From positions 1-64,000 of the forward strand of contig JABCZH010000010.1 in NCBI GenBank assembly GCA_013289795.1: a DNA stretch of 64,000 bases, in the 5' to 3' direction. The DNA is from Acidobacteriota bacterium (GTDB taxonomy: Bacteria > Acidobacteriota > Terriglobia > Terriglobales > Acidobacteriaceae). The number at the start of each line of letters is the position of its first letter. The first letter of the stretch is position 1. The position numbers and the translations under genes are program-made. Below the pieces are notes generated by a model, which searched no databases, was not told the DNA's origin, and worked only from the letters and a program-made list of their open reading frames with translations. Of this stretch, positions 1,082 to 47,987 are shown piece by piece.

Positions 1082-2197
1082 TCACATCACTTTGACTAGT
1101 CTTTCCCTTCGAACCCAACGCATCTCCTGCCCTCGGCTGTCTATGAGTGGATCGAACCCGAAGTATCTCACGAGTGAATCCCGCCAACTCAATCGAGGAG
1201 GGGGGATTTTGACTGTTTGACTCAGCGCCACGAACAAACCAGCCCATTTGTTGCCTTTCGCACTAGGGGCCAGTAGTCCGAAATAGCGAATCGCGTGTCG
1301 GTACAGGTCGGGCACGTGCGCTGCCAGTAGGCGGACGAACTCCGAGAATAGGCACCTTGTACGGACCAGTCGTCCCGCCTTGGTGTCCTTCGCCACGAAG
1401 ACAACCTCACGGTCTGTAACTTCCAACAGTCGCCAGCTAGCTATCGGCGGGCGGCGGACATACCGAGCCGCGTATCGTAGGAAGTGGGACTTCGAGACGA
1501 TTTTATGGAGAAAGATGATCCATCGGGGATGACGCTCGTTTTGATACGCTGTCGACAGAAGGCGCTGAAGACCTTGGGTACTGAGGTCTGATCGTAGTAC
1601 GCCAGCTCTGAGCGCGCTCCGAAGATGAGCGATCACTGCATAACGCCACATTCGCATCAGCGGCCCCTTTTCCAGTCGCAGGTGCGGAATCCATTGGGCT
1701 GACGACTCGTGGAGTCCTCCTGCCGAGACTAGGATGTGAAGGTGAGTATTGAATTTTAGGTCTCCCCCGAACGTGTGCGGGACAACCATCACGAGCACGC
1801 TGACGCCATACCGGATTCTTATCCATTGCTGAATCACGCGGGCACCCAGATCCGGCAAGTCGTGGAGAAGATGACGGTTTCTTTTGAAAATGCTCCATAG
1901 TTCACGCGGCATCGTGAAGACGACGCCCGCATAGGGAATGTCGGGAAGGGCCGCCTCCTGCTTCTCCAGCCACAGAAGGGTGGTGCGATACCCGCAGCTC
2001 GGGCAAAACCTCGATTTGCACCTATGATAACAACGCTTTTCCTCCGAATCGGAAGCATACAGTTCCCATCCGAGTGCCGCTGTCCCGCAATCGAGCACCG
2101 CGGCAAAAGCCTTGCGCACTGCGGGGCGAGTGCTAGGACGATCCCATTCAGTGCGCGTTGCTACCAGGATTTGCTTTAGCAGATTCAAGTCGGGCAT
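1082..2197 (-). CDS. IS91-like HUH (Y2) transposase
   Basis: The 371-aa product has the two signatures of IS91-family rolling-circle transposases. The N-terminal zinc-binding domain is CYHRCKSRFCPSCG (C56, H58, C60, C65, C68). The HUH metal site is in NTHLHILVSAGG (H152, H154). A Y-x3-Y motif follows in RYAARYVRRP (Y242, Y246), the expected nucleophile region, then a conserved HAIRYFGLLA tail segment. These enzymes nick single-stranded DNA and move elements by a rolling-circle mechanism without target duplications. The start codon lies inside the 3' end of the upstream ParB-like gene (13-nt overlap), suggesting translational coupling. Length and motifs look intact, so the enzyme may be active. 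Confidence 0.88.
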   Translation of the reverse strand: MPDLNLLKQILVATRTEWDRPSTRPAVRKAFAAVLDCGTAALGWELYASDSEEKRCYHRCKSRFCPSCGYRTTLLWLEKQEAALPDIPYAGVVFTMPRELWSIFKRNRHLLHDLPDLGARVIQQWIRIRYGVSVLVMVVPHTFGGDLKFNTHLHILVSAGGLHESSAQWIPHLRLEKGPLMRMWRYAVIAHLRSALRAGVLRSDLSTQGLQRLLSTAYQNERHPRWIIFLHKIVSKSHFLRYAARYVRRPPIASWRLLEVTDREVVFVAKDTKAGRLVRTRCLFSEFVRLLAAHVPDLYRHAIRYFGLLAPSAKGNKWAGLFVALSQTVKIPPPRLSWRDSLVRYFGFDPLIDSRGQEMRWVRRERLVKVM

Positions 2198-3126
2198 TTT
2201 GACTCCTCTATTGACCTCAGGGTGGATAGAGCGTCCTTGGTGAGATACGCGATGTTTCCAGGTGCATCAAGCTCAGTTACGACGATGGAGTCGAGCGCTG
2301 CCGATCGATCGGGAACGATAGGCTTGAGAAGACTACCCAGAGTGGCCGGAATCAGTTGGGTTGGCGACAGCCTCGCGACATGTCTCTGGATGAGCCGCCG
2401 ACTCGTCTGGTTCGTGCCTTTGCGGCTTTGATATTCCTCTAAATGGCGCGACTGCTGCTGGGGTGACAAGCGACTCCACTGCCACGCCTTGTGGATACTA
2501 ATCTCTCCGGTCCGTACCGCCTGCTCGACTCTGGCACAAGCCGTCTCCCTCAGTTGCTTCGCCTTCGTAACATTTCCCGTCGATATACCTGCGATCGAGG
2601 CAATTTCCGACCTCACGTCCAGCCGTTGAGCTTCCGTCAAATGTGACGAACCCTTGGTTTGACCGCCGGCTTGCTGGTTCGCCCGCGCCCGTTCTTGGAG
2701 GCAAGCCTCAAGATCAAGAGCTAGCAGCACTCGGCTATAGGAGTTCAATCCGCGGGAAGGACGATGACTCTGAATCAGCCAGCGTAGAGCTTCCTCATCC
2801 GTTAGGTCATATTCAAGGCAGAGAATCGTCTGGCGGCCCTGGCGGCCGGCCAATTCCCATCGAGCATAGCCGTCAATGATGATCCCATCTGGCGTAATGA
2901 CGATGGGTTCTCTGAACGCCAAACGTCCTAGACCTGCCAGCGACGATAATTGGGAGGCTGACACCGATACATGATGGTGGGCATAGCTGGGGTGCGGACG
3001 GAGTTCATGCAGGGGACGGGTCGTGAGGTGGCATCCGAAGCTATCTTCTTGACCGTCGTTCCGTTTCTGTTCGTCACGAACAGCCGTCATATCGCTAGGT
3101 TGGCCCGAGGACGACGGCGACCTCAA
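2185..3126 (-). CDS. ParB/Spo0J-like nuclease-fold protein coupled to the IS91-like transposase
   Basis: This 313-aa protein has a ParB N-terminal-like domain at about residues 35-130: LHELRPHPSYAHHH, then REPIVITPDGIIIDGYARWE and LTDEEALRWLIQSHRP. A ParB-like HTH region follows (EIASIAGISTGNVTKAKQL, near 175-195). The C-terminal third has no motif I recognise. True ParB proteins are CTPases that bind centromere sites, usually beside parA. No parA is present, and the stop codon is embedded in the transposase start. A role in element maintenance or target binding is therefore more plausible than chromosome partition. An alternative ATG 12 codons downstream is possible. Confidence 0.75.
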   Translation of the reverse strand: MRSPSSSGQPSDMTAVRDEQKRNDGQEDSFGCHLTTRPLHELRPHPSYAHHHVSVSASQLSSLAGLGRLAFREPIVITPDGIIIDGYARWELAGRQGRQTILCLEYDLTDEEALRWLIQSHRPSRGLNSYSRVLLALDLEACLQERARANQQAGGQTKGSSHLTEAQRLDVRSEIASIAGISTGNVTKAKQLRETACARVEQAVRTGEISIHKAWQWSRLSPQQQSRHLEEYQSRKGTNQTSRRLIQRHVARLSPTQLIPATLGSLLKPIVPDRSAALDSIVVTELDAPGNIAYLTKDALSTLRSIEESKCPT

Positions 3127-3132
3127 GGAAGT

Positions 3133-3210
3133 CCAGCCTCGGCGCGAGTAAAAAGGAGTCCACGGACCAATATTTCGGCGAGGTCGAGGCTGGAGAGTTT
3201 TTTACTCGCG
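3133..3210. repeat. Interleaved inverted repeats upstream of the ParB-like gene
   Basis: Two arm pairs alternate in the order a-b-a'-b'. CCAGCCTCG (3133-3141) is repeated inverted at 3185-3193, and CGCGAGTAAAAA (3143-3154) is repeated inverted at 3199-3210. The second arm is shared with the terminal repeat of the neighbouring cassette. The arrangement sits directly upstream of the ParB-like start, so it may hold its operator, an element end, or both. Confidence 0.6.
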
Positions 3211-3229
3211 TCGCGCGAGTTGCGCGAGT
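3198..3229. repeat. Left 32-bp inverted repeat of the QueC-like cassette
   Basis: This 32-nt sequence starts with TTTTTTACTCGCG and is an exact reverse complement of 6048-6079. Inside it, ACTCGCG-TCG-CGCGAGT (3204-3220) is a perfect 7-bp-arm palindrome, followed by a further TGCGCGAGT. No matching target-site duplication is visible outside the two repeats. Confidence 0.9.
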
Positions 3230-3338
3230 ACCAGGTTACGTTGGACGGCAACAAGTGCATCTTCCTGTTAGCGCGAGTCGGGTGTAGCATGGCTAACTCG
3301 AAGACAGGACGAATGCCACAAGGATTGGAGAAGCTACC

Positions 3339-4151
3339 TTGGGACACACCCGCCTCGGTCCACTTCCGAAGTCGAGAAGCTGGAACCAAGTAGTTGAGTC
3401 GCTCACTGGGAGAGGCTTGCGTCAGTACGCCGTTTCCAGTTCCGCCTCTCGCGTCAACATAATCGCCGCGGAGACCCTCAAAGCAGCCAGAAGCACACTG
3501 GCAAGGGCGAGCTACGATCCGGGTGTTCGCTATACGTTTTACCTGCTTACCCAGCTCGTTCTGGCGTCCCGTAACCCAGATTGGCGAAGCGAACTCGGTC
3601 AGCACGGAATCTCCCTGTCAGACCAGAGCAGCGTCTTCGACCTTACGGCGGAGGTGCAGGGCACAATTGACCGCTATATCAGTGGTACTGCTCTTGGAGC
3701 GACAGACCTTAGCGAAATGGCACAACAGGCTGCTGGGGAAGCCCTGACAAGTCTCCTCGCCACGCAGACGCCCAGCGTATTTGGAGATTCCGATTCGAAA
3801 GATCTAAAGAACGCATTGCGCAGTTTGTCGACGAAAAAGGGCTTTGGGCAATTGGGGCAGAGGTTTTTCGCTCGCTTCGTCGCGAGATTTCTGAACTTTC
3901 ACCTTAGTCGTGCTACCGCTGCTGGGCTGGGCACTCCACGCTTGCAGAATTTGGGATACATAGGTGAGTTCAATGAGGCACTCACAACCCACTGTGAGGA
4001 GAGTGCGCGAATTGTCCGCGACTTCTGTGGGGACTGGTACTCCAAAACCGAATATGAGCAAGGCATTGATCTTGCAAATTCAACACGTTTTCTGGCAATC
4101 GCCGTTCGGAAACTGAAGAGCGAACTTCAGCATCAGGGGAGTGCCTCCTGA
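3339..4151 (+). CDS. Unknown protein paired with QueC-like gene (QatB-like candidate)
   Basis: This 270-aa frame is mostly alpha-helical, with no signal peptide or membrane segment. It is the first gene of a two-gene cassette and stops shortly before the QueC-like gene. The TTG start at 3339 follows GGAG by 8 nt and gives an N-terminal Met-Gly. However, another frame, ATG 3289 to TAG 3391, also looks coding (MANSKTGRMPQGLEKLPWDT), and a -1 shift at about 3388-3391 would fuse the two. Size, helical character and position before a QueC-like gene recall QatB of Qat defence systems. That is inference from context and remembered family features, not from a decisive motif. The C-terminal part contains CEESARIVRDFCGDWYSKTE. 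Confidence 0.7.
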   Translation: MGHTRLGPLPKSRSWNQVVESLTGRGLRQYAVSSSASRVNIIAAETLKAARSTLARASYDPGVRYTFYLLTQLVLASRNPDWRSELGQHGISLSDQSSVFDLTAEVQGTIDRYISGTALGATDLSEMAQQAAGEALTSLLATQTPSVFGDSDSKDLKNALRSLSTKKGFGQLGQRFFARFVARFLNFHLSRATAAGLGTPRLQNLGYIGEFNEALTTHCEESARIVRDFCGDWYSKTEYEQGIDLANSTRFLAIAVRKLKSELQHQGSAS

Positions 4152-4186
4152 CTCGCAACCGTCTCTTCGTTTGCAGTGGCGCTTCA

Positions 4187-6103
4187 GTGAAGGCCCGTGA
4201 TCCGACCTTGACGGAACGCCACCGAATCAACCTAGACGCGATTAGCGACAATCACAACGTCAAAATCCGGTTCGAGGACGTTGCTCGGACCTTTCAACAC
4301 AATATCTCTCCGCGGCTTATGGACTTTTTGGAAATCGCTTCCTATGTGTTCACAGCGGATTGCTCGACACAGCGGGGTGAGTGGAAGGATGACAAAGGCG
4401 CAGAGCCTTGGGGACGGGATCTAGCTTTCTTGATTGGAGTTAGAGAACCCGAGTTCTGGGAAGCTCCGAGGGTTAAAGGCCTGATCCATGAGGTGCTGCG
4501 CTTTCTCTCGAATGACACCTATTCTTTCCAGTTTGTACCGCTTGAGAAGGATCGCCGGGCCCAAACGCCTTACTTTGAATTTCGCGATAAAGACGACTGG
4601 CCATTTCATAAACCGGATCGTGTGGTGATGTTTTCGGGTGGGTTGGATTCGCTGGCCGGGATCGTCGAGGCGGCGGCCTCTGGAGGCAAGTCGGTTTTGG
4701 TCAGTCATCGACCGGTCTCCACTCTGGACTCACGTCAGAGGAAGCTGTTCGGCGAATTGTGTAAGAAATTCCCTGGCCAGCTTACCCACGTTCCGGTGTG
4801 GATCAACAAGAATGAGCGTTTTGGTAGAGAGCCCACGCAGCGGACTCGTTCGTTCTTGTTCGCCGCCCTGGGAACCCTCGTAGCGCAATCGATTGACGCG
4901 CAAGGCGTCCGATTTTATGAGAATGGCGTCCTGAGTGTGAACCTGCCGCTCGCGGAGGAAGCATTGCGGGCACGGGCTTCCCGGACCACGCATCCCGTGA
5001 CTCTGCATTTGCTGTCGTTATTGGCGGCAGCCGTAACAGGGCGAGAATTGCTGATCGACAATCCCTTTTTGTTCAAAACCAAGGCCGAAGTCGTGCAAAT
5101 TCTGGCGAAATACGACCACACTGACCTAGTCGCGCTGAGCTGCTCATGTTCGCATCTCATGTTCCAATCTAGCGAAAAGCGCCACTGTGGCCAGTGCAGC
5201 CAGTGTATTGATCGAAGGTTCGCAGTGGCTGGTGCAGGGTTGCTCTCCAAGGACCCTGAAACGGACTATGCGAGTGATGTGTTCATCGGTGCGCGCCCGA
5301 AAGAATTGGACCGTTCCATTGCCATTGATTACACGCGGCACGGAATCGAACTCGAACGCAGGTCTGATCTTGAGATCGCGGGGAACTTTAACGCAGAAAT
5401 AAGCCGTGCCGTGCGCTACGAAAGCAAAGGTCGAGAAGTGGCCGAGGCGTTAATTGCGATGTATAAGCGACACGGAACGGTCGTGCGAAGGGTTCTGGAG
5501 GAGCAGTTACGGATTAACGCCGCAAAGTTGATCGATCGAACTCTTGAAGGGACCTCTTTGCTGGCGCTTGCCATTGGCCAGAGCTACTTGGCCGGTGAAG
5601 AACCCTTGGCTGGGACTTTCGCAGATCAAGGTACTGTTCCGAACCGCGAACCTCGCAATGCCAGTAGCCTCATTCTGGCGAAGCTGGACCAGATACTCAA
5701 GGGATTCGAACCCGGCGTTGACAGCCACACGCAGCGTCGCAAAATGACGGGCAAGTCAAGCTCTCCGGCCAAACGAGACACGATCCTCTTCGCTGCTATC
5801 GCCAGCGATCTAGTGGGTCTCAAGTATTGCAGTTTTCTCGATAATCACAGGGTAAGACCGAAGTGGTCTGACACTGGCCCAAAAAGCTACCGGGACAGCT
5901 ATTTCGCAAGCGGTTCTTATAAAAAGAGGGTCCAGGACGAAAAGAGCCGCGCCAAACAGCGGATGAATCGATCTATCGATTCCGTCTTGGCAGAAGCCTT
6001 CATCACCCACCTACCGGGTGAATTCGACAAGCTTGTCTCTCTCTTGAACTCGCGCAACTCGCGCGACGCGAGTAAAAAATTGAGACCGTCCACAGGCGCT
6101 TAA
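4187..6103 (+). CDS. QueC-like PP-loop protein with extra N- and C-terminal domains (QatC-like candidate)
   Basis: The central domain (about residues 143-350) is QueC-like. It has a PP-loop SGGLDS at 150-155 in RVVMFSGGLDSLAG, and a zinc-site cluster CSCSH (C319, C321) plus CGQCSQC (C334, C337, C340). QueC adenylates a 7-carboxy-deazaguanine to make preQ0. At 638 aa this protein is far larger than QueC (about 230 aa). It has about 140 residues before the PP-loop and about 280 after, including a basic C-terminal domain (515-620) not recognised. QueC-like proteins of this kind occur in Qat and type IV CBASS defence loci. GTG 4187 lacks a good ribosome-binding site. A CTG at 4148, 6 nt after AGGGGAG and overlapping the upstream TGA, would add RLFVCSGAS and may be the real start. 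The last residues are encoded by the right inverted repeat. Confidence 0.85.
   Translation: MKARDPTLTERHRINLDAISDNHNVKIRFEDVARTFQHNISPRLMDFLEIASYVFTADCSTQRGEWKDDKGAEPWGRDLAFLIGVREPEFWEAPRVKGLIHEVLRFLSNDTYSFQFVPLEKDRRAQTPYFEFRDKDDWPFHKPDRVVMFSGGLDSLAGIVEAAASGGKSVLVSHRPVSTLDSRQRKLFGELCKKFPGQLTHVPVWINKNERFGREPTQRTRSFLFAALGTLVAQSIDAQGVRFYENGVLSVNLPLAEEALRARASRTTHPVTLHLLSLLAAAVTGRELLIDNPFLFKTKAEVVQILAKYDHTDLVALSCSCSHLMFQSSEKRHCGQCSQCIDRRFAVAGAGLLSKDPETDYASDVFIGARPKELDRSIAIDYTRHGIELERRSDLEIAGNFNAEISRAVRYESKGREVAEALIAMYKRHGTVVRRVLEEQLRINAAKLIDRTLEGTSLLALAIGQSYLAGEEPLAGTFADQGTVPNREPRNASSLILAKLDQILKGFEPGVDSHTQRRKMTGKSSSPAKRDTILFAAIASDLVGLKYCSFLDNHRVRPKWSDTGPKSYRDSYFASGSYKKRVQDEKSRAKQRMNRSIDSVLAEAFITHLPGEFDKLVSLLNSRNSRDASKKLRPSTGA
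6048..6079. repeat. Right 32-bp inverted repeat of the QueC-like cassette
   Basis: This is the exact reverse complement of 3198-3229. It lies inside the 3' end of the QueC-like gene and encodes NSRNSRDASKK, so the stop codon falls outside the repeat-bounded segment. The repeats bound about 2.9 kb containing both cassette genes and no transposase. Confidence 0.9.
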
Positions 6104-6200
6104 TTCCTCGCCGAGCCCTCAAAATCCACTCGCGGAGTCTCATAGGACACTGTCGGCTGTTTTTCAGAAGGTAGACGATGGGATTGTCCAAAGCTGATTG

Positions 6201-6268: not shown

Positions 6269-6469
6269 ATGTTGCCAGATACGCCGAATTATGAAGTGGT
6301 CGATGCTATCGAATTGGCTCAGCGTTGGCGTGTTCCCGTCAGTTGGATCAGGGAACAGACGCGAGGCCGTGCTGGTGATCCGCTGCCATGCGTTCGTCTA
6401 GGCCGCTACGTCCGTTTCGAGTGGGGAAGCCCGAAGTTGGCGGAGTGGTGGGGAAAGCGCAGAACCTGA
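6269..6469 (+). CDS. Excisionase-like helix-turn-helix protein
   Basis: This 66-aa protein has the layout of MerR-type winged HTH excisionases (HTH_17): YEVVDAIELAQRWRVPVSWIRE, then a variable loop, CVRLGRYVRFEW and a final LAEWW helix. Such proteins bend attachment-site DNA and steer a tyrosine integrase towards excision. It lies upstream of the integrase with one small gene between. The ATG follows GGAG by 10 nt. The small size and position make excisionase or directionality factor the best call. Confidence 0.75.
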   Translation: MLPDTPNYEVVDAIELAQRWRVPVSWIREQTRGRAGDPLPCVRLGRYVRFEWGSPKLAEWWGKRRT

Positions 6470-6728: not shown

Positions 6729-8054
6729 TTGAAACGAAAACGACAGCAAGACGGACACATCTTCAAGGCGCGGGGAATCTGGTACGTCCGTTATTTTGAC
6801 ACTCGCGTCATCGACGGTGAAGTGAAACGGGTCCGAATCGCAAAGCAGATCGCAAAGGTGAGAGAGGAAATCAATGGTGTTCAGACGACCATCACCAAGG
6901 CTAAGGCCCGAGAATTGGCCAAGCCGACACTGATCAAGGTTAACCAGTCCGACCGTACACCCCAAACGGCGGTATCGCTCGTTGATTTTGTCGAGCGTAT
7001 TTACCTGCCGCGGATGGAGGAACAAAAGCGACCATCAACAGTAAAAGGGTATCGAGATATTTGGGCGAATCACCTCAGGGGACGCAGCGGGGGTCTCTGG
7101 ATGCGCGAGATTCGTACCTGCGACATCCAGCGGATGCTTGACGAAATTGCGCAGCCCGGAACGCTCAGCGGCAATTCCATGCGCCACATCAAAAGCCAAA
7201 TAAGCGGCATCTTCTCCTATGCCAAGCAACAGGGCTACTTTGACGGCGAAAATCCAGCGCGCAATACAGCCATTCCTCCGGCACGGACCTCGGAAGAAAC
7301 ATATGCATACAGCCTTGAGGAGATTGGGCAGATTCTCTCAGTGCTCTCAGAACCAGCGGCGACAGTTTTCGCAGTCGCTGCATTTATAGGGGCACGGCGC
7401 GGAGAGATTCGGGGGCTAATGTGGGAGAACTACCGGGATGGCGAGATCCAGATCACACGGTCTATCTGGAAGGGCCACGTCACCGAGCCCAAAACGCGGA
7501 AGAGCCGGGGTGCTATTCCAGTAATCGCACCACTGGCCAAGCGCCTAGAGTTTCACCGTGCCAGTAGTGGCAATCGCAAATCGGGCGTTATGTTCCCTAA
7601 CCTAAGCGGCTCCCCGATGGACTTGGGAAACCTGCTAAACCGCGCAATCCTGCCCGCACTGAACCGCTGCGCTGCGTGCGGAAGGCCGAAAGAAGAATGC
7701 CAAAAGCTCGTCAAAGGGAAGGACATCGCGCTAGATCACAAATTTGAACGAGACAAGATGCTCCCTGAATGGCACGGCTGGCACGCAGCAAGGCGGGGAT
7801 TGGGAACGAACCTGTACCGCCTAGGCGTGCCGGAAAAGACGATCCAGGCCATTCTTCGCCATGCAAACGTATCCACAACCAACACCTATTACATCAAGAG
7901 TGCGGCAGCTGACACTCGCGCTGCGATGGCCAAGCTAGAACAGCTCGTGATTGGCAACGAGCCCCCGGCTGGAACAGTACAGCTTGAGATTTTCGCAAGT
8001 GGCAACGAAGTGGCAACAAAAGCAGAAGACGCCAAACCTGCTGCAATCCAGTAA
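6729..8054 (+). CDS. Tyrosine site-specific integrase
   Basis: This 441-aa phage/ICE-type integrase has an N-terminal arm-binding region (GHIFKARGIWYVRYFDTRV), a SAM-like core-binding domain (about 80-190) and a catalytic domain. Catalytic residues are R223 in GARRGEIRG, H352 and R355 in WHAARRG, H378 in LRHAN, and a tyrosine at 387 or 388 in TNTYYIK. An insertion with CAACGRPKEEC (C314, C317, C324) and H337 looks like a small zinc knuckle. The start is TTG 6729 because AAAGGAG lies 8 nt upstream and the frame before it overlaps the previous gene. The gene ends 27 nt before the 3' end of a tRNA gene, which is the probable integration target. Confidence 0.93.
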   Translation: MKRKRQQDGHIFKARGIWYVRYFDTRVIDGEVKRVRIAKQIAKVREEINGVQTTITKAKARELAKPTLIKVNQSDRTPQTAVSLVDFVERIYLPRMEEQKRPSTVKGYRDIWANHLRGRSGGLWMREIRTCDIQRMLDEIAQPGTLSGNSMRHIKSQISGIFSYAKQQGYFDGENPARNTAIPPARTSEETYAYSLEEIGQILSVLSEPAATVFAVAAFIGARRGEIRGLMWENYRDGEIQITRSIWKGHVTEPKTRKSRGAIPVIAPLAKRLEFHRASSGNRKSGVMFPNLSGSPMDLGNLLNRAILPALNRCAACGRPKEECQKLVKGKDIALDHKFERDKMLPEWHGWHAARRGLGTNLYRLGVPEKTIQAILRHANVSTTNTYYIKSAAADTRAAMAKLEQLVIGNEPPAGTVQLEIFASGNEVATKAEDAKPAAIQ

Positions 8055-8081: not shown

Positions 8082-8158
8082 TGGTGGCGGCGGTTGGACT
8101 CGAACCAACGACCTACGGATTATGAGACCGTCGCTCTAGCCACCTGAGCTACGCCGCC
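8082..8158 (-). tRNA. tRNA-Met (CAU), or tRNA-Ile2; island integration target
   Basis: The minus strand folds as a full cloverleaf: acceptor GGCGGCG/CGCCGCC, D-arm GCTC...GAGC, anticodon loop CTCATAA (anticodon CAU), T-arm GTTGG-TTCGAGT-CCAAC, discriminator A and encoded CCA at 8084-8082. The top anticodon-stem pair is a U-U mismatch. CAU can be elongator Met or lysidine-modified Ile; sequence alone does not settle it. The 3' end faces the integrase gene. Confidence 0.93.
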
Positions 8159-46169: not shown

Positions 46170-46547
46170 ATGTTCGAAGTCACCGTCGAAGACTCGTTTG
46201 CCGCAGGACACTACCTCCGCAATTACAAGGGGAAGTGTGAAAACCCGCATGGGCACAATTACAAGATCCGGGTCACGCTGGCCGGCAAGGAGCTTGACAA
46301 GGCCGGCCTACTGCTCGACTTCAAAGATCTTCGCGAGGTCATGAAGCACGTAATCGAGCGCCTCGATCATCAGATGATCAACGATCTGGAGCCATTTACG
46401 AAGCTGAACCCCTCGGCCGAAAATCTGGCCAAGTATTTCTACGACGAGAGCAATGCCAAGCTCGATCGCGTCACCAACGGGCGCGTGCGAATAAAGAACG
46501 TGACTGTATTCGAGACAGACAGCACAACAGCTACATATTCCGAGTAA
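46170..46547 (+). CDS. queD: 6-carboxytetrahydropterin synthase
   Basis: The 125-aa enzyme makes 6-carboxy-tetrahydropterin from dihydroneopterin triphosphate, the first dedicated step to preQ0. Zinc ligands H14 (AAGHYL), H27 and H29 (NPHGHN) and catalytic C23 are present; ENLAKYF and VFETDSTTATY follow. It heads a queD-queE-queC operon with gaps of 44 and 19 nt. No preQ1 riboswitch motif is apparent upstream. Confidence 0.95.
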   Translation: MFEVTVEDSFAAGHYLRNYKGKCENPHGHNYKIRVTLAGKELDKAGLLLDFKDLREVMKHVIERLDHQMINDLEPFTKLNPSAENLAKYFYDESNAKLDRVTNGRVRIKNVTVFETDSTTATYSE

Positions 46548-46591
46548 CGGTTTAGCTGAAAGCTGAAAGCCAAGGGCTGATAGCTCGCCCC

Positions 46592-47272
46592 ATGCAAATA
46601 ACCGAGATTTACAAGTCGATCCAAGGCGAGTCCACCCATGCGGGACTACCGTGCGTCTTTGTCCGCCTCACCGGGTGCAACCTGCGCTGCTCCTGGTGTG
46701 ACAGCGAATACACCTTCACTGGTGGTCATCGCATGAGCATGGAAGAAGTCCTCGAAGAAGTGGAACAACTCAGCCCCGGCGGCCTGGTCGAGATCACGGG
46801 CGGCGAGCCGATGTTGCAGGAGAAAGAGGTCGTGCCCTTGATGCAACGCCTGCTCGACGACGGCTACACCGTGCTGCTCGAGACCAGCGGCGAGCGCCGG
46901 TTGGACCACGTCCCCCGGGCGGTGCACAAGATTGTCGACGTTAAATGCCCGAACTCCGGCGAGCCTGATACCTTCCACATGGAAAACTTGGAAGCCCTCA
47001 GCTCGGCGGACGAAATTAAATTTGTGCTGAGCGACCGCACCGACTATGAGTTCGCAAAGGATTTCGTGGCCCGCCACGATTTAGCTCGCCGCGTTAACGC
47101 GGTTTTATTCTCGCCCGCCTTCGCCAAAGATGCCCGCGGCGGGCGGGACACTTCGCACTGCCTGCTCGATCCCCGCGAACTGGCCGAGTGGATGCTCGCC
47201 GACAACGTTCCCGCGCGCCTGGGATTGCAGCTTCATAAGTTCATCTGGGACCCGGCGCTGAAGGGGGTTTAG
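46592..47272 (+). CDS. queE: 7-carboxy-7-deazaguanine synthase
   Basis: The 226-aa radical-SAM enzyme contracts the pterin ring to 7-carboxy-7-deazaguanine. The cluster motif is C29-x3-C33-x2-C36 in [31 protein letters not shown] at the N-terminus and [11 protein letters not shown] are typical of QueE. It lies between queD and queC. Confidence 0.96.
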
Positions 47273-47291
47273 CCTCCCTTCACTCTTTCTT

Positions 47292-47987
47292 ATGCCGGAA
47301 ATGTCATTCTCATCTCGCGCCGTCGTTCTGCTCAGTGGAGGCATGGATTCTTGTGTCTGCGCCGCTCTGGCAGTTCGCGATTTCAACGCCGCGGCCGTCC
47401 ACGTGAGCTATGGACAGCGAACGGAAGACCGCGAGCGCAGGGCCTTTAATTCGATTTGCGACCGCCTGGGCATCCGTGACCGGCTGATTGTGCGCAATGA
47501 CGCCCTGCGCGCCATCGGAGGATCGGCGCTTACCGATCCTACGATTCCCGTCCCCGAGTCCCAGGCCATTGGGCACGACATTCCAGTAACCTACGTGCCC
47601 TTTCGCAATGCCCATTTCTTGTCCGTGGCCGTGAGCTGGGCTGAGGTTCTGGGGGCCGGGAAGGTGTACATTGGAGCGGTCGAACAAGACAGTTCCGGAT
47701 ACCCCGACTGCCGGCCGGAATATTACCGGGCATTTAACGAGGTCGTGAAGACGGGCACCAAAGACGGCCGCATCCAGATCGTCACGCCTCTGATCGGCAT
47801 GCGCAAGTTCGAGATTGTCCGGCTTGGCCTTGAATTGGGTGCGCCCTTCGATTTAACGTGGTCTTGTTACACTAAGGAGGATCGTGCCTGCGGAGTCTGC
47901 GACAGTTGCGTGCTTCGGCTGCGCGCTTTTCGTGAGGCTGGGACCGCGGATCCGATTTCGTACGAGGAAGCAATAAGCAAGCTGTAA
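47292..47987 (+). CDS. queC: 7-cyano-7-deazaguanine (preQ0) synthase
   Basis: The 231-aa ATP-dependent enzyme converts carboxy-deazaguanine to preQ0. Its PP-loop is [14 protein letters not shown] (SGGMDS at 15-20), [16 protein letters not shown] follows, and the zinc cysteines are in [15 protein letters not shown]. Length and motifs are canonical. This makes the longer island QueC-like protein (4187-6103) clearly additional rather than the housekeeping enzyme. Confidence 0.97.

What the first reader, a model, noticed from the sequence alone, without database searches (positions are those of the whole stretch)
3198..6079. Two-gene QueC-like cassette bounded by perfect 32-bp inverted repeats
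The sequence shows exact 32-nt inverted repeats 2.9 kb apart. They enclose one unknown 270-aa gene and one 638-aa gene with a QueC PP-loop and zinc cysteines, and no transposase. QueC-like proteins are known in Qat and type IV CBASS anti-phage systems; recent work on those families implicates deazaguanine-type modification of a partner protein. Here only a B-like and a C-like gene are present on a tRNA-integrated island. This may be a minimal, self-bounded, possibly mobilisable defence cassette.
Basis: partly seen in the sequence, partly recalled or inferred. Interest (0 to 1): 0.87.

Follow-up and report, generated by a model that had tools for sequence, protein, structure and literature searches.

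The report
Minimal Qat-like immune pair, repeat-bounded
Two bacterial genes related to the core of the Qat anti-phage system sit between matching DNA ends that, in the genomes searched, surround only this gene pair; a distant relative has a DNA-cutting domain fused to the enzyme, which suggests a compact two-gene immune system.

Summary
The repeats are real: exact 32-nt inverted arms at 3198-3229 and 6048-6079, the only copies in the genome. Each is the core of a ~90-nt end; the unit is 2,990 bp (3144-6133). Such ends lie at 9 acidobacterial loci, always with this gene pair, and at no other convincing place in 298 genomes of the order. The pair is a divergent QatB/QatC without QatA or QatD. 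C matches QatC profiles and structures. B matches no QatB profile, but its weak model aligns best to solved QatB (Z 12.3; next 6.5) and keeps a glycine tail, MGHxRLGxxP, shared by Leptospira and 11 IMG/VR contigs. The end of C varies: a DpnII/MboI nuclease in Leptospira, winged-helix-like on IMG/VR contigs, unidentified here. Most likely: a two-gene Qat-type defence in which C modifies B's N-terminal glycine. Self-mobility is not supported: no transposase inside, no target duplication, a ParB-like gene outside at 6 of 6 readable loci, an integrase at 7 of 9. The function of the ends is open.

The parts
1082..2197 (-). IS91-family Y2 transposase gene, outside the bounded unit
   Evidence: NCBIfam transpos_IS91 3.3e-65 and Pfam Y2_Tnp/Zn_Tnp_IS91
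2185..3126 (-). ParB-like gene overlapping the Y2 gene, outside the left end
   Evidence: PHROGs ParB-like 3e-6; a ParB-like gene left of B at 6 of 6 loci with a readable left flank
3140..3229 (+). Left end of the unit: outer half-site GCGAGT at 3144-3149, core 3200-3229; contains the 32-nt arm 3198-3229
   Evidence: R1 model match 2.9e-17; alignment A7 of 13 ends. This end is one of the 13 sequences R1 was built from
3283..3290 (+). -10-like element TGTAGCAT upstream of B, at a variable distance from the end among loci
   Evidence: Position from the script offset; that it is a promoter is inference
3339..4151 (+). B gene, 270 aa, divergent QatB-like protein
   Evidence: VIA-align to QatB 9y02_A Z 12.3; no QatB HMM match; dN/dS well under 1
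3339..3383 (+). B N-terminal tail MGHTRLGPLPKSRSW with the putative acceptor glycine (residue 2)
   Evidence: GHTRLG after the start codon in 6 of 6 B of end-bearing loci with a readable N-terminus; MGHERLG in Leptospira; MGHVRLG or MGHQRLG in 11 of 11 B on IMG/VR contigs
4187..6103 (+). C gene, 638 aa from GTG, QatC-like; the homologous reading continues upstream to a CTG at 4148 that overlaps the B stop, so the true start may be there
   Evidence: NCBIfam QatC 6.6e-58, PADLOC QatC 1.5e-54, PDB QatC 8.6e-28; upstream reading compared by eye with L025/L024 N-termini
4634..4651 (+). SGGLDS pyrophosphate loop of C (residues 150-155)
   Evidence: Sequence; aligned to the QatC SGG loop; S150 G151 G152 D154 S155 invariant in A5
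4979..4996 (+). SRTTHP of C: S265 and T267 align with P. aeruginosa QatC T278 and T280
   Evidence: phmmer alignment; RASRTTHP in 7 of 7 C of end-bearing loci in which the stretch was read
5186..5206 (+). Zinc-site cysteines C334, C337, C340 of C
   Evidence: Aligned to the QatC CGxC region; invariant in A5
5279..6100 (+). C-terminal extension of C (residues ~365-638); the distal ~155 aa is an unidentified domain
   Evidence: No Pfam or PADLOC match to the window segment at E up to 10, none in the PDB for the alignment; PHROGs only a weak 0.047 match; conserved alignment A8 of 5 loci
6048..6138 (-). Right end of the unit: core 6048-6077 (inside the C gene), outer half-site ACTCGC at 6128-6133; contains the 32-nt arm 6048-6079
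   Evidence: R1 model match 1.5e-18; A7. Also one of the 13 training sequences
6269..6469 (+). Small excisionase-like gene
   Evidence: Read by eye; relatives precede related integrases; no Pfam match
6729..8054 (+). Tyrosine integrase
   Evidence: Pfam Phage_integrase 1.3e-10 (on the longer ORF from 6606)
8082..8158 (-). tRNA-Met next to the integrase
   Evidence: ARAGORN
46170..46547 (+). queD
   Evidence: TIGR03367 3.4e-31, over its cut-off
46592..47272 (+). Probable queE between queD and queC
   Evidence: Read by eye; no family search made
47292..47987 (+). Canonical queC
   Evidence: TIGR00364 4.2e-53, over its cut-off

Best explanation
This is a minimal two-gene, Qat-type anti-phage module. 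B is a divergent QatB: a helical protein with an N-terminal tail that starts with Met-Gly. C is a divergent QatC: a QueC-family ATP-using enzyme with N- and C-terminal extensions. Mechanism, step by step. (1) B and C form a complex (inferred from QatBC structures). (2) The initiator Met of B is removed and the tail (M)GHxRLGxxP enters the C active site (inferred; the tail is the best conserved part of B across distant relatives). (3) C uses ATP to couple a 7-deazaguanine-type group, or a related acid, to the N-terminal glycine of B (inferred from Cap9, where this is published, and from QatC, where the glycine is essential but the product is unknown). (4) The complex, triggered by infection, acts through the C-terminal domain of C, which takes the place of the missing QatA and QatD (only the anatomy is shown: a nuclease domain in the Leptospira relative, a winged-helix-like end in others, an unidentified domain here). 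In the acidobacterial branch the pair is delimited by two ~90-nt inverted ends that stay with the gene pair while the neighbouring gene families change; they are boundary or cis-acting sites whose reader is not known.
For: C: NCBIfam QatC 6.6e-58 and PADLOC QatC 1.5e-54 within residues 12-365; PDB QatC 9vlk 8.6e-28 and 9zee 6.7e-26 with PP-loop, RxRSFxF, TTHP and zinc cysteines aligned. B: VIA-align ranks the two QatB entries first and second, Z 12.3 and 12.1, 189 of 211 residues, rmsd 4.4, against 6.5 for the next chain. Tail: GHTRLG after the start in 6 of 6 B of end-bearing loci; Leptospira MGHERLGILPKTRSW although the whole is only 24.7% identical; 11 of 11 B on IMG/VR contigs begin MGHxRLGxLP, the first of them found by a pattern that left out the start codon. 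Two-gene layout: B and C adjoin or overlap in Leptospira and at L161. Effector-like ends: Leptospira C ends in Pfam REase_DpnII-MboI, 38.3 bits against a cut-off of 27. Published (PMC13279940, abstract to discussion read): QatBC alone protects against lambda-vir; QatB Gly2 and tail residues 16-22 are essential. The C clade (5 acidobacterial rows, SC52, Leptospira) has support 99/98 among QatC. The host has queD, queC and a probable queE in the same window. Both genes are under purifying selection (dN 0.11-0.19 against dS 0.9-1.8 for the closest pairs).
Against: No phage test exists for this branch. B matches no QatB HMM, and profile comparison with six QatB is negative (probability 1.9%). The B model is weak (mean pLDDT 60.4 from 4 sequences), Foldseek alone is not significant (QatB E 2.5-2.6, ranks 14 and 17), and the VIA tool warns that helical models can reach Z 13-14 through a common arrangement. 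C is below the curated QatC cut-off (196.5 of 280 bits). QatC T278 is serine here, and the product of QatC is unknown even in the studied systems (PMC13279940). The tail tryptophan (W15), matched to the conserved Trp18 of QatB, is missing in 9 of 11 IMG/VR-contig B. The acidobacterial C-terminal domain is unidentified. Many relatives lie on contigs classed as viral, where a role against rival phages, or another role, is as open as host defence.
Confidence: 0.66

Rival explanations
1. The ends are terminal inverted repeats and the pair is the cargo of a non-autonomous transposable unit moved by a transposase in trans.
For: The ends have nearly fixed inner geometry (outer GCGAGT to first inner ACTCGC 58-60 nt in 13 of 13 ends) but a variable distance to the -10-like element of B (53-163 nt at 6 loci). 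The right end overlaps the last gene, as in compact transposons. In 298 genomes they were found only with BC. ParB and integrase neighbours differ in family between loci with close B.
Against: No target duplication beyond chance at 4 of 4 two-ended loci. Neighbour types are constant: ParB-like at 6 of 6, integrase at 7 of 9. No copy with another cargo or with a transposase inside was found. L068 and L072 share sequence past the left outer half-site to about 140 nt from the core, so the left boundary is not sharp there. At most two copies per genome.
Confidence: 0.2
2. The ends are binding sites read by the BC proteins themselves (for instance by the C-terminal domain of C), for autoregulation, anchoring or self-recognition.
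For: BC is the only gene set constant with the ends; ParB types and integrase families change. Each end carries four GCGAGT/ACTCGC half-sites in a fixed pattern in most copies. Related C on SC52 and on IMG/VR contigs end in what looks by eye like a winged helix (Pfam PF00486 only E 0.16 and 0.13).
Against: The distance from end to -10-like element varies from 53 to 163 nt, unlike an operator. DNA binding by the acidobacterial C-terminal domain is not shown. The Leptospira, L006 and L161 pairs, winged-helix-like ones included, show no such flanking inverted ends.
Confidence: 0.3
3. The ends are control sites of the island, read by the ParB-like protein or the excisionase/integrase, which face outward from them.
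For: Each end lies between BC and an outward-facing gene set (ParB-Y2 on the left, excisionase-like gene and integrase on the right).
Against: 14 of 14 fetched ParB-Y2 loci without BC and 9 of 9 fetched stretches with related integrases lack the ends. The ends are alike beside two ParB types (31-42% identical between types, 46-75% within the larger one, 54% within the other) and several integrase families.
Confidence: 0.2
4. B is not a QatB but an unrelated helical protein, and the pair has a non-defence role.
For: No profile relation to QatB; no phage data; relatives on contigs classed as viral.
Against: QatB stands far above all other chains in the structural comparison; glycine tail conserved across distant relatives; genes adjoin or overlap; C has the QatC-like substrate loop; fused restriction-type nuclease in Leptospira; the host has its own queC.
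Confidence: 0.12

Closest known systems
Qat (qatABCD) anti-phage system, QatB-QatC core (PMC13279940; PDB 9y01, 9y02, 9zee, 9vlk)
   Same: QatC-type enzyme with PP-loop, zinc site, TTHP loop and extensions; partner with a QatB-like helical fold, low-confidence (probably flexible) tail and N-terminal Met-Gly; B directly before C.
   Different: No qatA or qatD in the unit; B beyond QatB profile detection; tail MGHxRLGxxP instead of MGTS; S at the T278 position; C about 170 aa longer than the solved QatC, with a C-terminal domain (a nuclease in Leptospira); ~90-nt inverted ends in Acidobacteria.
Type IV CBASS Cap9 with its CD-NTase (PMC11996544, seen only in a search listing with the start of its abstract; described in PMC13279940)
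   Same: QueC-family enzyme acting on the N-terminal glycine of its partner (published there, inferred here).
   Different: Partner is not a CD-NTase, no Cap10 in the unit; C has the QatC-like loop (S/T where Cap9 has Tyr/Asp) and long extensions.
Canonical QueC (queuosine pathway)
   Same: PP-loop ATPase fold and zinc cysteines.
   Different: C is nearly three times longer, scores 20.8 of 150.3 bits with the QueC model, and the host has a separate queC at 47292-47987.
Transposons with terminal inverted repeats / non-autonomous units
   Same: Inverted ends with several short sites in fixed order; right end overlaps the last gene.
   Different: No transposase inside, no target duplication seen, constant neighbour types, only one kind of cargo seen.

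Membership tests
Qat system (qatABCD) | QatC-type QueC-family protein | tested here: met
   NCBIfam NF041925 6.6e-58, but 196.5 bits is under the curated 280; PADLOC 1.5e-54; PDB QatC 8.6e-28; among QatC rows in the tree
Qat system (qatABCD) | QatB by sequence profile | tested here: not met
   No PADLOC or NCBIfam QatB match at E up to 1, 0 matches of NF041924 in G000, hhalign probability 1.9%
Qat system (qatABCD) | QatB fold | tested here: inconclusive
   VIA-align Z 12.3 to 9y02_A, 189 of 211 residues, next 6.5, but model pLDDT 60.4 and Foldseek E 2.6; I lean to positive
Qat system (qatABCD) | N-terminal Met-Gly on a tail with conserved Pro and Trp | tested here: met
   Met-Gly in 18 of 18 close and distant B read (6 acidobacterial, Leptospira, 11 IMG/VR) and in L006. 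Pro at residue 10 in all 18; Trp15 in 9 of the 18 (absent in 9 of 11 IMG/VR B). Residues 1-39 under pLDDT 50
Qat system (qatABCD) | qatA (KAP NTPase) in the operon | tested here: not met
   Only B and C lie in 3144-6133; adjacent genes are ParB-like, Y2, excisionase-like, integrase. The rest of the genome was not searched for qatA
Qat system (qatABCD) | qatD (TatD nuclease) in the operon | tested here: not met
   Same calls; the rest of the genome was not searched for qatD
Qat system (qatABCD) | Invariant T278 and T280 in the QatC substrate site | tested here: inconclusive
   S265 and T267 align to them; S in 7 of 7 acidobacterial C read and in Leptospira; T-x-T in SC52 and 9 of 10 IMG/VR C (the tenth is broken)
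Qat system (qatABCD) | Anti-phage activity | not testable with these tools
   Needs plaque assays
Type IV CBASS | CD-NTase partner and Cap10 | tested here: not met
   B has no CD-NTase match and the unit holds no third gene
Canonical QueC | QueC over the curated cut-off | tested here: not met
   TIGR00364 20.8 bits of 150.3 for C; the host queC scores 181
Inverted-repeat transposable unit | Inverted terminal repeats shared by several copies | tested here: met
   13 ends at 9 loci, both ends at 4
Inverted-repeat transposable unit | Transposase inside, or an autonomous partner with the same ends | tested here: not met
   None inside; no other strong match to the ends in 298 genomes (strict filters, 14 candidates scored per genome); other orders not tested
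Inverted-repeat transposable unit | Target-site duplication | tested here: not met
   0 of 4 two-ended loci beyond chance
Inverted-repeat transposable unit | Empty sites | tested here: inconclusive
   Stretches beside 41-55% identical integrases hold other genes and are too divergent to align

The most novel reading that the evidence does not exclude
A separate branch of QatBC-type immunity in which the glycine-tailed partner (tail MGHxRLGxxP) is fixed across Acidobacteria, Leptospira and contigs classed as viral, while the enzyme carries interchangeable C-terminal output domains (a restriction-type nuclease in Leptospira, a winged-helix-like end on viral contigs and plasmid pSC52_1, an unknown domain here), so that one modified two-protein complex both senses and acts. 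In Acidobacteria this complex also reads its own DNA ends, which tie the immune pair to a slot in integrase islands.
Probability: 0.3. Interest if true: 0.86.

Novelty: new variant of a known kind. Interest (0 to 1): 0.73.

Why it matters
In qatABCD the chemistry of QatC and the link from QatB to phage arrest are open questions (PMC13279940). A natural two-gene version without QatA and QatD beside it, with a nuclease fused to the enzyme in one relative, could tie the modification directly to an effector and offers a short, strongly conserved substrate tail to test by mass spectrometry. Ends found, in the sample searched, only around this immune pair would be an unusual cis element for a defence module. 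The tail and the end patterns can find members that current QatB profiles miss, as the IMG/VR scan showed.

Tried and rejected
QatB by profile: PADLOC, NCBIfam and hhalign were negative. Foldseek alone was not significant; only the VIA second look separated QatB from the rest. The C model (mean pLDDT 40.9) was too poor to search with. The acidobacterial C-terminal segment of the window found nothing in Pfam or PADLOC at E up to 10, and its alignment nothing in the PDB; one relative (L069) gave weak sub-threshold matches (CARD 0.019, DUF4722 0.13, Cas7_IIIh 0.029), and PHROGs gave a family of unknown function at 0.047; I trust none of them. The Leptospira nuclease segment found nothing in the PDB by sequence.

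Intrinsic terminator: rejected by sequence, since the T-run precedes the core hairpin on one strand and an A-run follows it on the other. Operator of the B promoter: weakened by variable spacing. Concerted evolution of the two arms: the own left-right pair was the best match in 2 of 4 rows (window and L069), so the exact 32 nt in the window may simply reflect constraint on each end. Invertible cassette: at the loci where ParB and B can both be read (6), B is on the ParB side, so no inversion was seen. Sharp empty site: the outward identity profile is noisy, with a shuffled baseline near 57%; some pairs fall to baseline after the outer half-site, L068-L072 does not. Stretches beside related integrases carried other genes and could not be aligned.

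B in IMG/VR by the acidobacterial alignment: 322 stretches, none confirmed; the degenerate tail pattern then gave one contig, and its neighbouring gene led to more. B in GenBank phages: none. G439 holds a degraded B fragment (56 residues matched) without C or ends. The G452 match (E 9e-4) lies opposite another ORF and I take it as chance. Of the 33 weak R1 rows (E 0.0027 to 0.098), one overlaps the known L024 end; the others were not followed up. The L069 row of the ParB comparison was out of frame and is dropped; one search repeats it in frame.

Full report
Observation. The window holds exact 32-nt inverted arms at 3198-3229 and 6048-6079, inside a 37-nt pair at 95%. They are the only copies in the genome at up to 3 mismatches over a 26-nt core. 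Between them are two genes, B (3339-4151, 270 aa) and C (4187-6103, 638 aa). The right arm lies inside C and codes its tail. Relatives of C begin earlier, at the stop of B; in the window the same reading (RLFVCSG) runs up to a CTG at 4148, so the GTG start may be internal (inference).

Organism. The window is therefore acidobacterial (inference from kinship).

Relatives with ends. A pattern for the arm core was found at 12 places in 7 of 298 genomes of the order, with 0 in the reversed control. All 12 places lie at loci with B and/or C, or a C remnant. With L023, from the named genome collection, there are 9 loci and 13 ends. Both ends are readable at 4 loci (window, L024, L068, L069). The other 5 are incomplete: L023 starts inside B; L025 has lost the end of C and the right end; L071 has lost B and the left end; L072 has lost most of C and the right end; L073 is a remnant with the tail of C and the right end. 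Aligned, the 13 ends share an outer GCGAGT (13 of 13), a middle CAGTnTTTATGCG-like stretch in most, and the core TTTTACTCGCGnnnNGCGAGTTGCGCGAGT with few changes. From the outer GCGAGT to the first inner ACTCGC it is 58-60 nt in 13 of 13. A sequence model of the 13 ends finds the same 12 places at E 2.6e-16 or better in 298 genomes and then drops to 0.0027; the 12 are training sequences, so the news is the absence of others, under strict filters with 14 candidates scored per genome. The unit measures 2,990 bp in the window (3144-6133) and 3,036-3,177 bp in the other three two-ended loci.

Neighbours. A ParB-like gene lies left of B at 6 of 6 readable loci, with an IS91-type Y2 transposase (broken in L025) behind it at 5 of them; L024's contig ends there. 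An integrase lies on the right side at 7 of 9 loci (window, L023, L024, L068, L069, L071, L072), but from several families: 51-56% to the window's at L071 and L072, 23-27% at L068 and L023, none detected by tblastn at L024 and L069, where it was read by eye from ORFs. ParB matches were found in 26 of 298 genomes; I fetched 14 of these loci without BC, and all 14 have ParB and Y2 while none has B, C or ends. B of L072 is 81% identical to B of L068, but their ParB proteins are 36% identical; the L072 ParB is nearest to that of L024 (54%), whose B is 68%. So neighbours are exchanged while BC and ends stay together. Against independent movement: neighbour types are constant, no target duplication beyond chance was seen at 4 of 4 loci, and L068 and L072 share sequence beyond the left outer half-site.

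C. C is QatC-like within residues 12-365 (NCBIfam 6.6e-58, below the curated cut-off; PADLOC 1.5e-54) and aligns with two solved QatC sequences. S265 and T267 align with the QatC threonines T278 and T280, which stand where QueC and Cap9 have Tyr and Asp (PMC13279940). C is about 170 aa longer than the solved QatC. Its last ~155 aa are conserved among 5 acidobacterial loci but match nothing known. C and B are under purifying selection.

B. No QatB profile matches. AlphaFold2 from 4 sequences gives an all-helical model with ten helices and a low-confidence first 39 residues, mean pLDDT 60.4. VIA-align places QatB 9y02_A and 9y01_A first (Z 12.3 and 12.1), with 6.5 for the next chain. Foldseek lists the same chains without significance. 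With a QatC next door, I take B as a divergent QatB.

The tail and the wider family. GHTRLG follows the start codon (ATG, GTG or TTG) in 6 of 6 B of end-bearing loci with an N-terminus. A tblastn search of plasmids with B gave one record: Leptospira noguchii plasmid p1 (NZ_CP091938.1), 24.7% over residues 1-263, beginning MGHERLGILPKTRSW. The next gene overlaps it by 4 nt and codes a 621-aa QatC-like protein (31% over 516 aa). Its end matches Pfam REase_DpnII-MboI above the cut-off (1.2e-9) and PADLOC models named Aga_Helical-REase (2.1e-5). No qatA or qatD is annotated in the stretch; PADLOC found none in three neighbours tested; PLSDB tables are incomplete. No comparable flanking ends were seen. 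A scan of IMG/VR with a degenerate tail pattern, start codon left out, gave one contig, and the reading begins MGHVRLGSLPKTRKW right at an ATG. A search with its neighbour, a Fic-like gene (by eye), brought 18 contigs; 11 of these carry B (10 full length, one partial), all 11 beginning MGHxRLGxLP, and 10 carry C (9 open to the end, one broken). At L161, B (261 aa) and C (633 aa, 39% over 460 aa to the window's C) overlap and stand beside primase/helicase-like genes. This set was picked through the Fic-like gene, so the Fic link is biased. The nine open C end in a stretch that looks by eye like a winged helix, as does the C fragment on plasmid pSC52_1 (35% over 265 aa); Pfam PF00486 gives only E 0.13-0.16. 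Trp15, which I match to the QatB tail Trp18, is present in the 6 acidobacterial B, Leptospira and 2 of the 11 IMG/VR B, and absent in the other 9; in QatB, Gly2 and residues 16-22 are needed for defence (PMC13279940). In a tree of 18 proteins, made before the IMG/VR pairs were known, 5 acidobacterial C, SC52 and Leptospira form one clade with support 99/98; SC52 and Leptospira are flagged as long branches.

Canonical and other pairs. Of 297 genomes of the phylum, 19 had a match to C, the weakest at E 1e-4 to 1e-3 and perhaps ordinary QueC. I searched 12 genomes for QatB: 6 have it, 4 over the cut-off, beside QatC and, by eye, next to a QatA-like gene. L006/L133 (same family) holds another pair, a 258-aa protein starting MGSQ and a 472-aa QatC-like protein, without such ends; its B is weakly related to the window's B (E 5e-4 in a two-sequence comparison).

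Substrate. queD and queC are at 46170 and 47292 of the window, above curated cut-offs, with a probable queE between them; queD and queC are over their cut-offs in 6 of 6 genomes tested of the 7 with ends. The cell can thus probably make CDG, and C is not needed as its QueC.

Reading. What it works like: a QatBC pair. Whether it is a member of Qat: not as defined, since qatA and qatD are absent beside it and QatB profiles fail; it is a variant branch of the QatBC core. Shown here: gene content, homology of C, fold similarity of B (weak model), tail conservation, ends and their exclusivity in the sample. Inferred: complex, modification of Gly2, trigger, output through the C-terminal domain, function of the ends.

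Literature. Five searches of the held library list no paper that, from title and abstract start, describes a two-gene QatBC system with such ends or a fused nuclease; preprints outside the library and most subscription papers were not searched. PMC13279940 was read from abstract through discussion and the first methods; PMC13329287 in parts 1 and 2 of 5 and by passages. The latter reports qatA and qatD beside about a third of QatC-cluster genes, and says qatB is found at a similar frequency (data not shown), so it does not show how common B-C pairs without them are.

Noticed in passing
window 1082-3126 and L074-L087: A ParB-like gene followed by an IS91-type Y2 transposase recurs as a two-gene module, in several loci next to tRNA or excisionase-like sequences, without BC (14 of 14 fetched loci).
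   Followed up: partly
window 46170-47987: queD, a probable queE and queC stand in a row 40 kb from the pair on the same contig.
   Followed up: partly
L161 7377-11398; L162-L167, L169, L170, L173, L174: IMG/VR contigs with B (MGHxRLGxLP) and a long C with a winged-helix-looking end, divergent from a Fic-like gene (11 of 18 contigs fetched through the Fic-like gene).
   Followed up: partly
L156 9001-11645: Leptospira noguchii plasmid p1: the same two-gene layout with a DpnII/MboI nuclease domain fused to the QatC-like protein, downstream of an IS982 transposase.
   Followed up: yes
L157 6031-7287: Plasmid pSC52_1: a QatC-like fragment after IS3 genes, with a winged-helix-looking end; a large gene with a weak STAND NTPase match follows.
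   Followed up: partly
L006 569-2829 (L133 6872-9132): A second, distant Met-Gly pair: 258-aa MGSQ protein and 472-aa QatC-like protein, followed by a small PIN-like ORF (by eye), without ends.
   Followed up: partly
L136 4451-8361: A QatC-like gene beside an HTH-ImmA-like gene and another small gene (by eye), with a 212-aa ORF upstream; no QatB profile match in that genome.
   Followed up: no
L071 7578-9053: A group II intron maturase-like gene (by eye) stands upstream of a degraded copy of C in which B is missing.
   Followed up: no
L025 12523-13724: C is cut short and runs into a reverse-strand ORF (glycoside-hydrolase-like by eye), a rearrangement that removed the right end and integrase.
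   Followed up: no
L123 1-4506: A stretch with a 54% identical integrase carries helicase- and nuclease-like genes (by eye) instead of BC.
   Followed up: no
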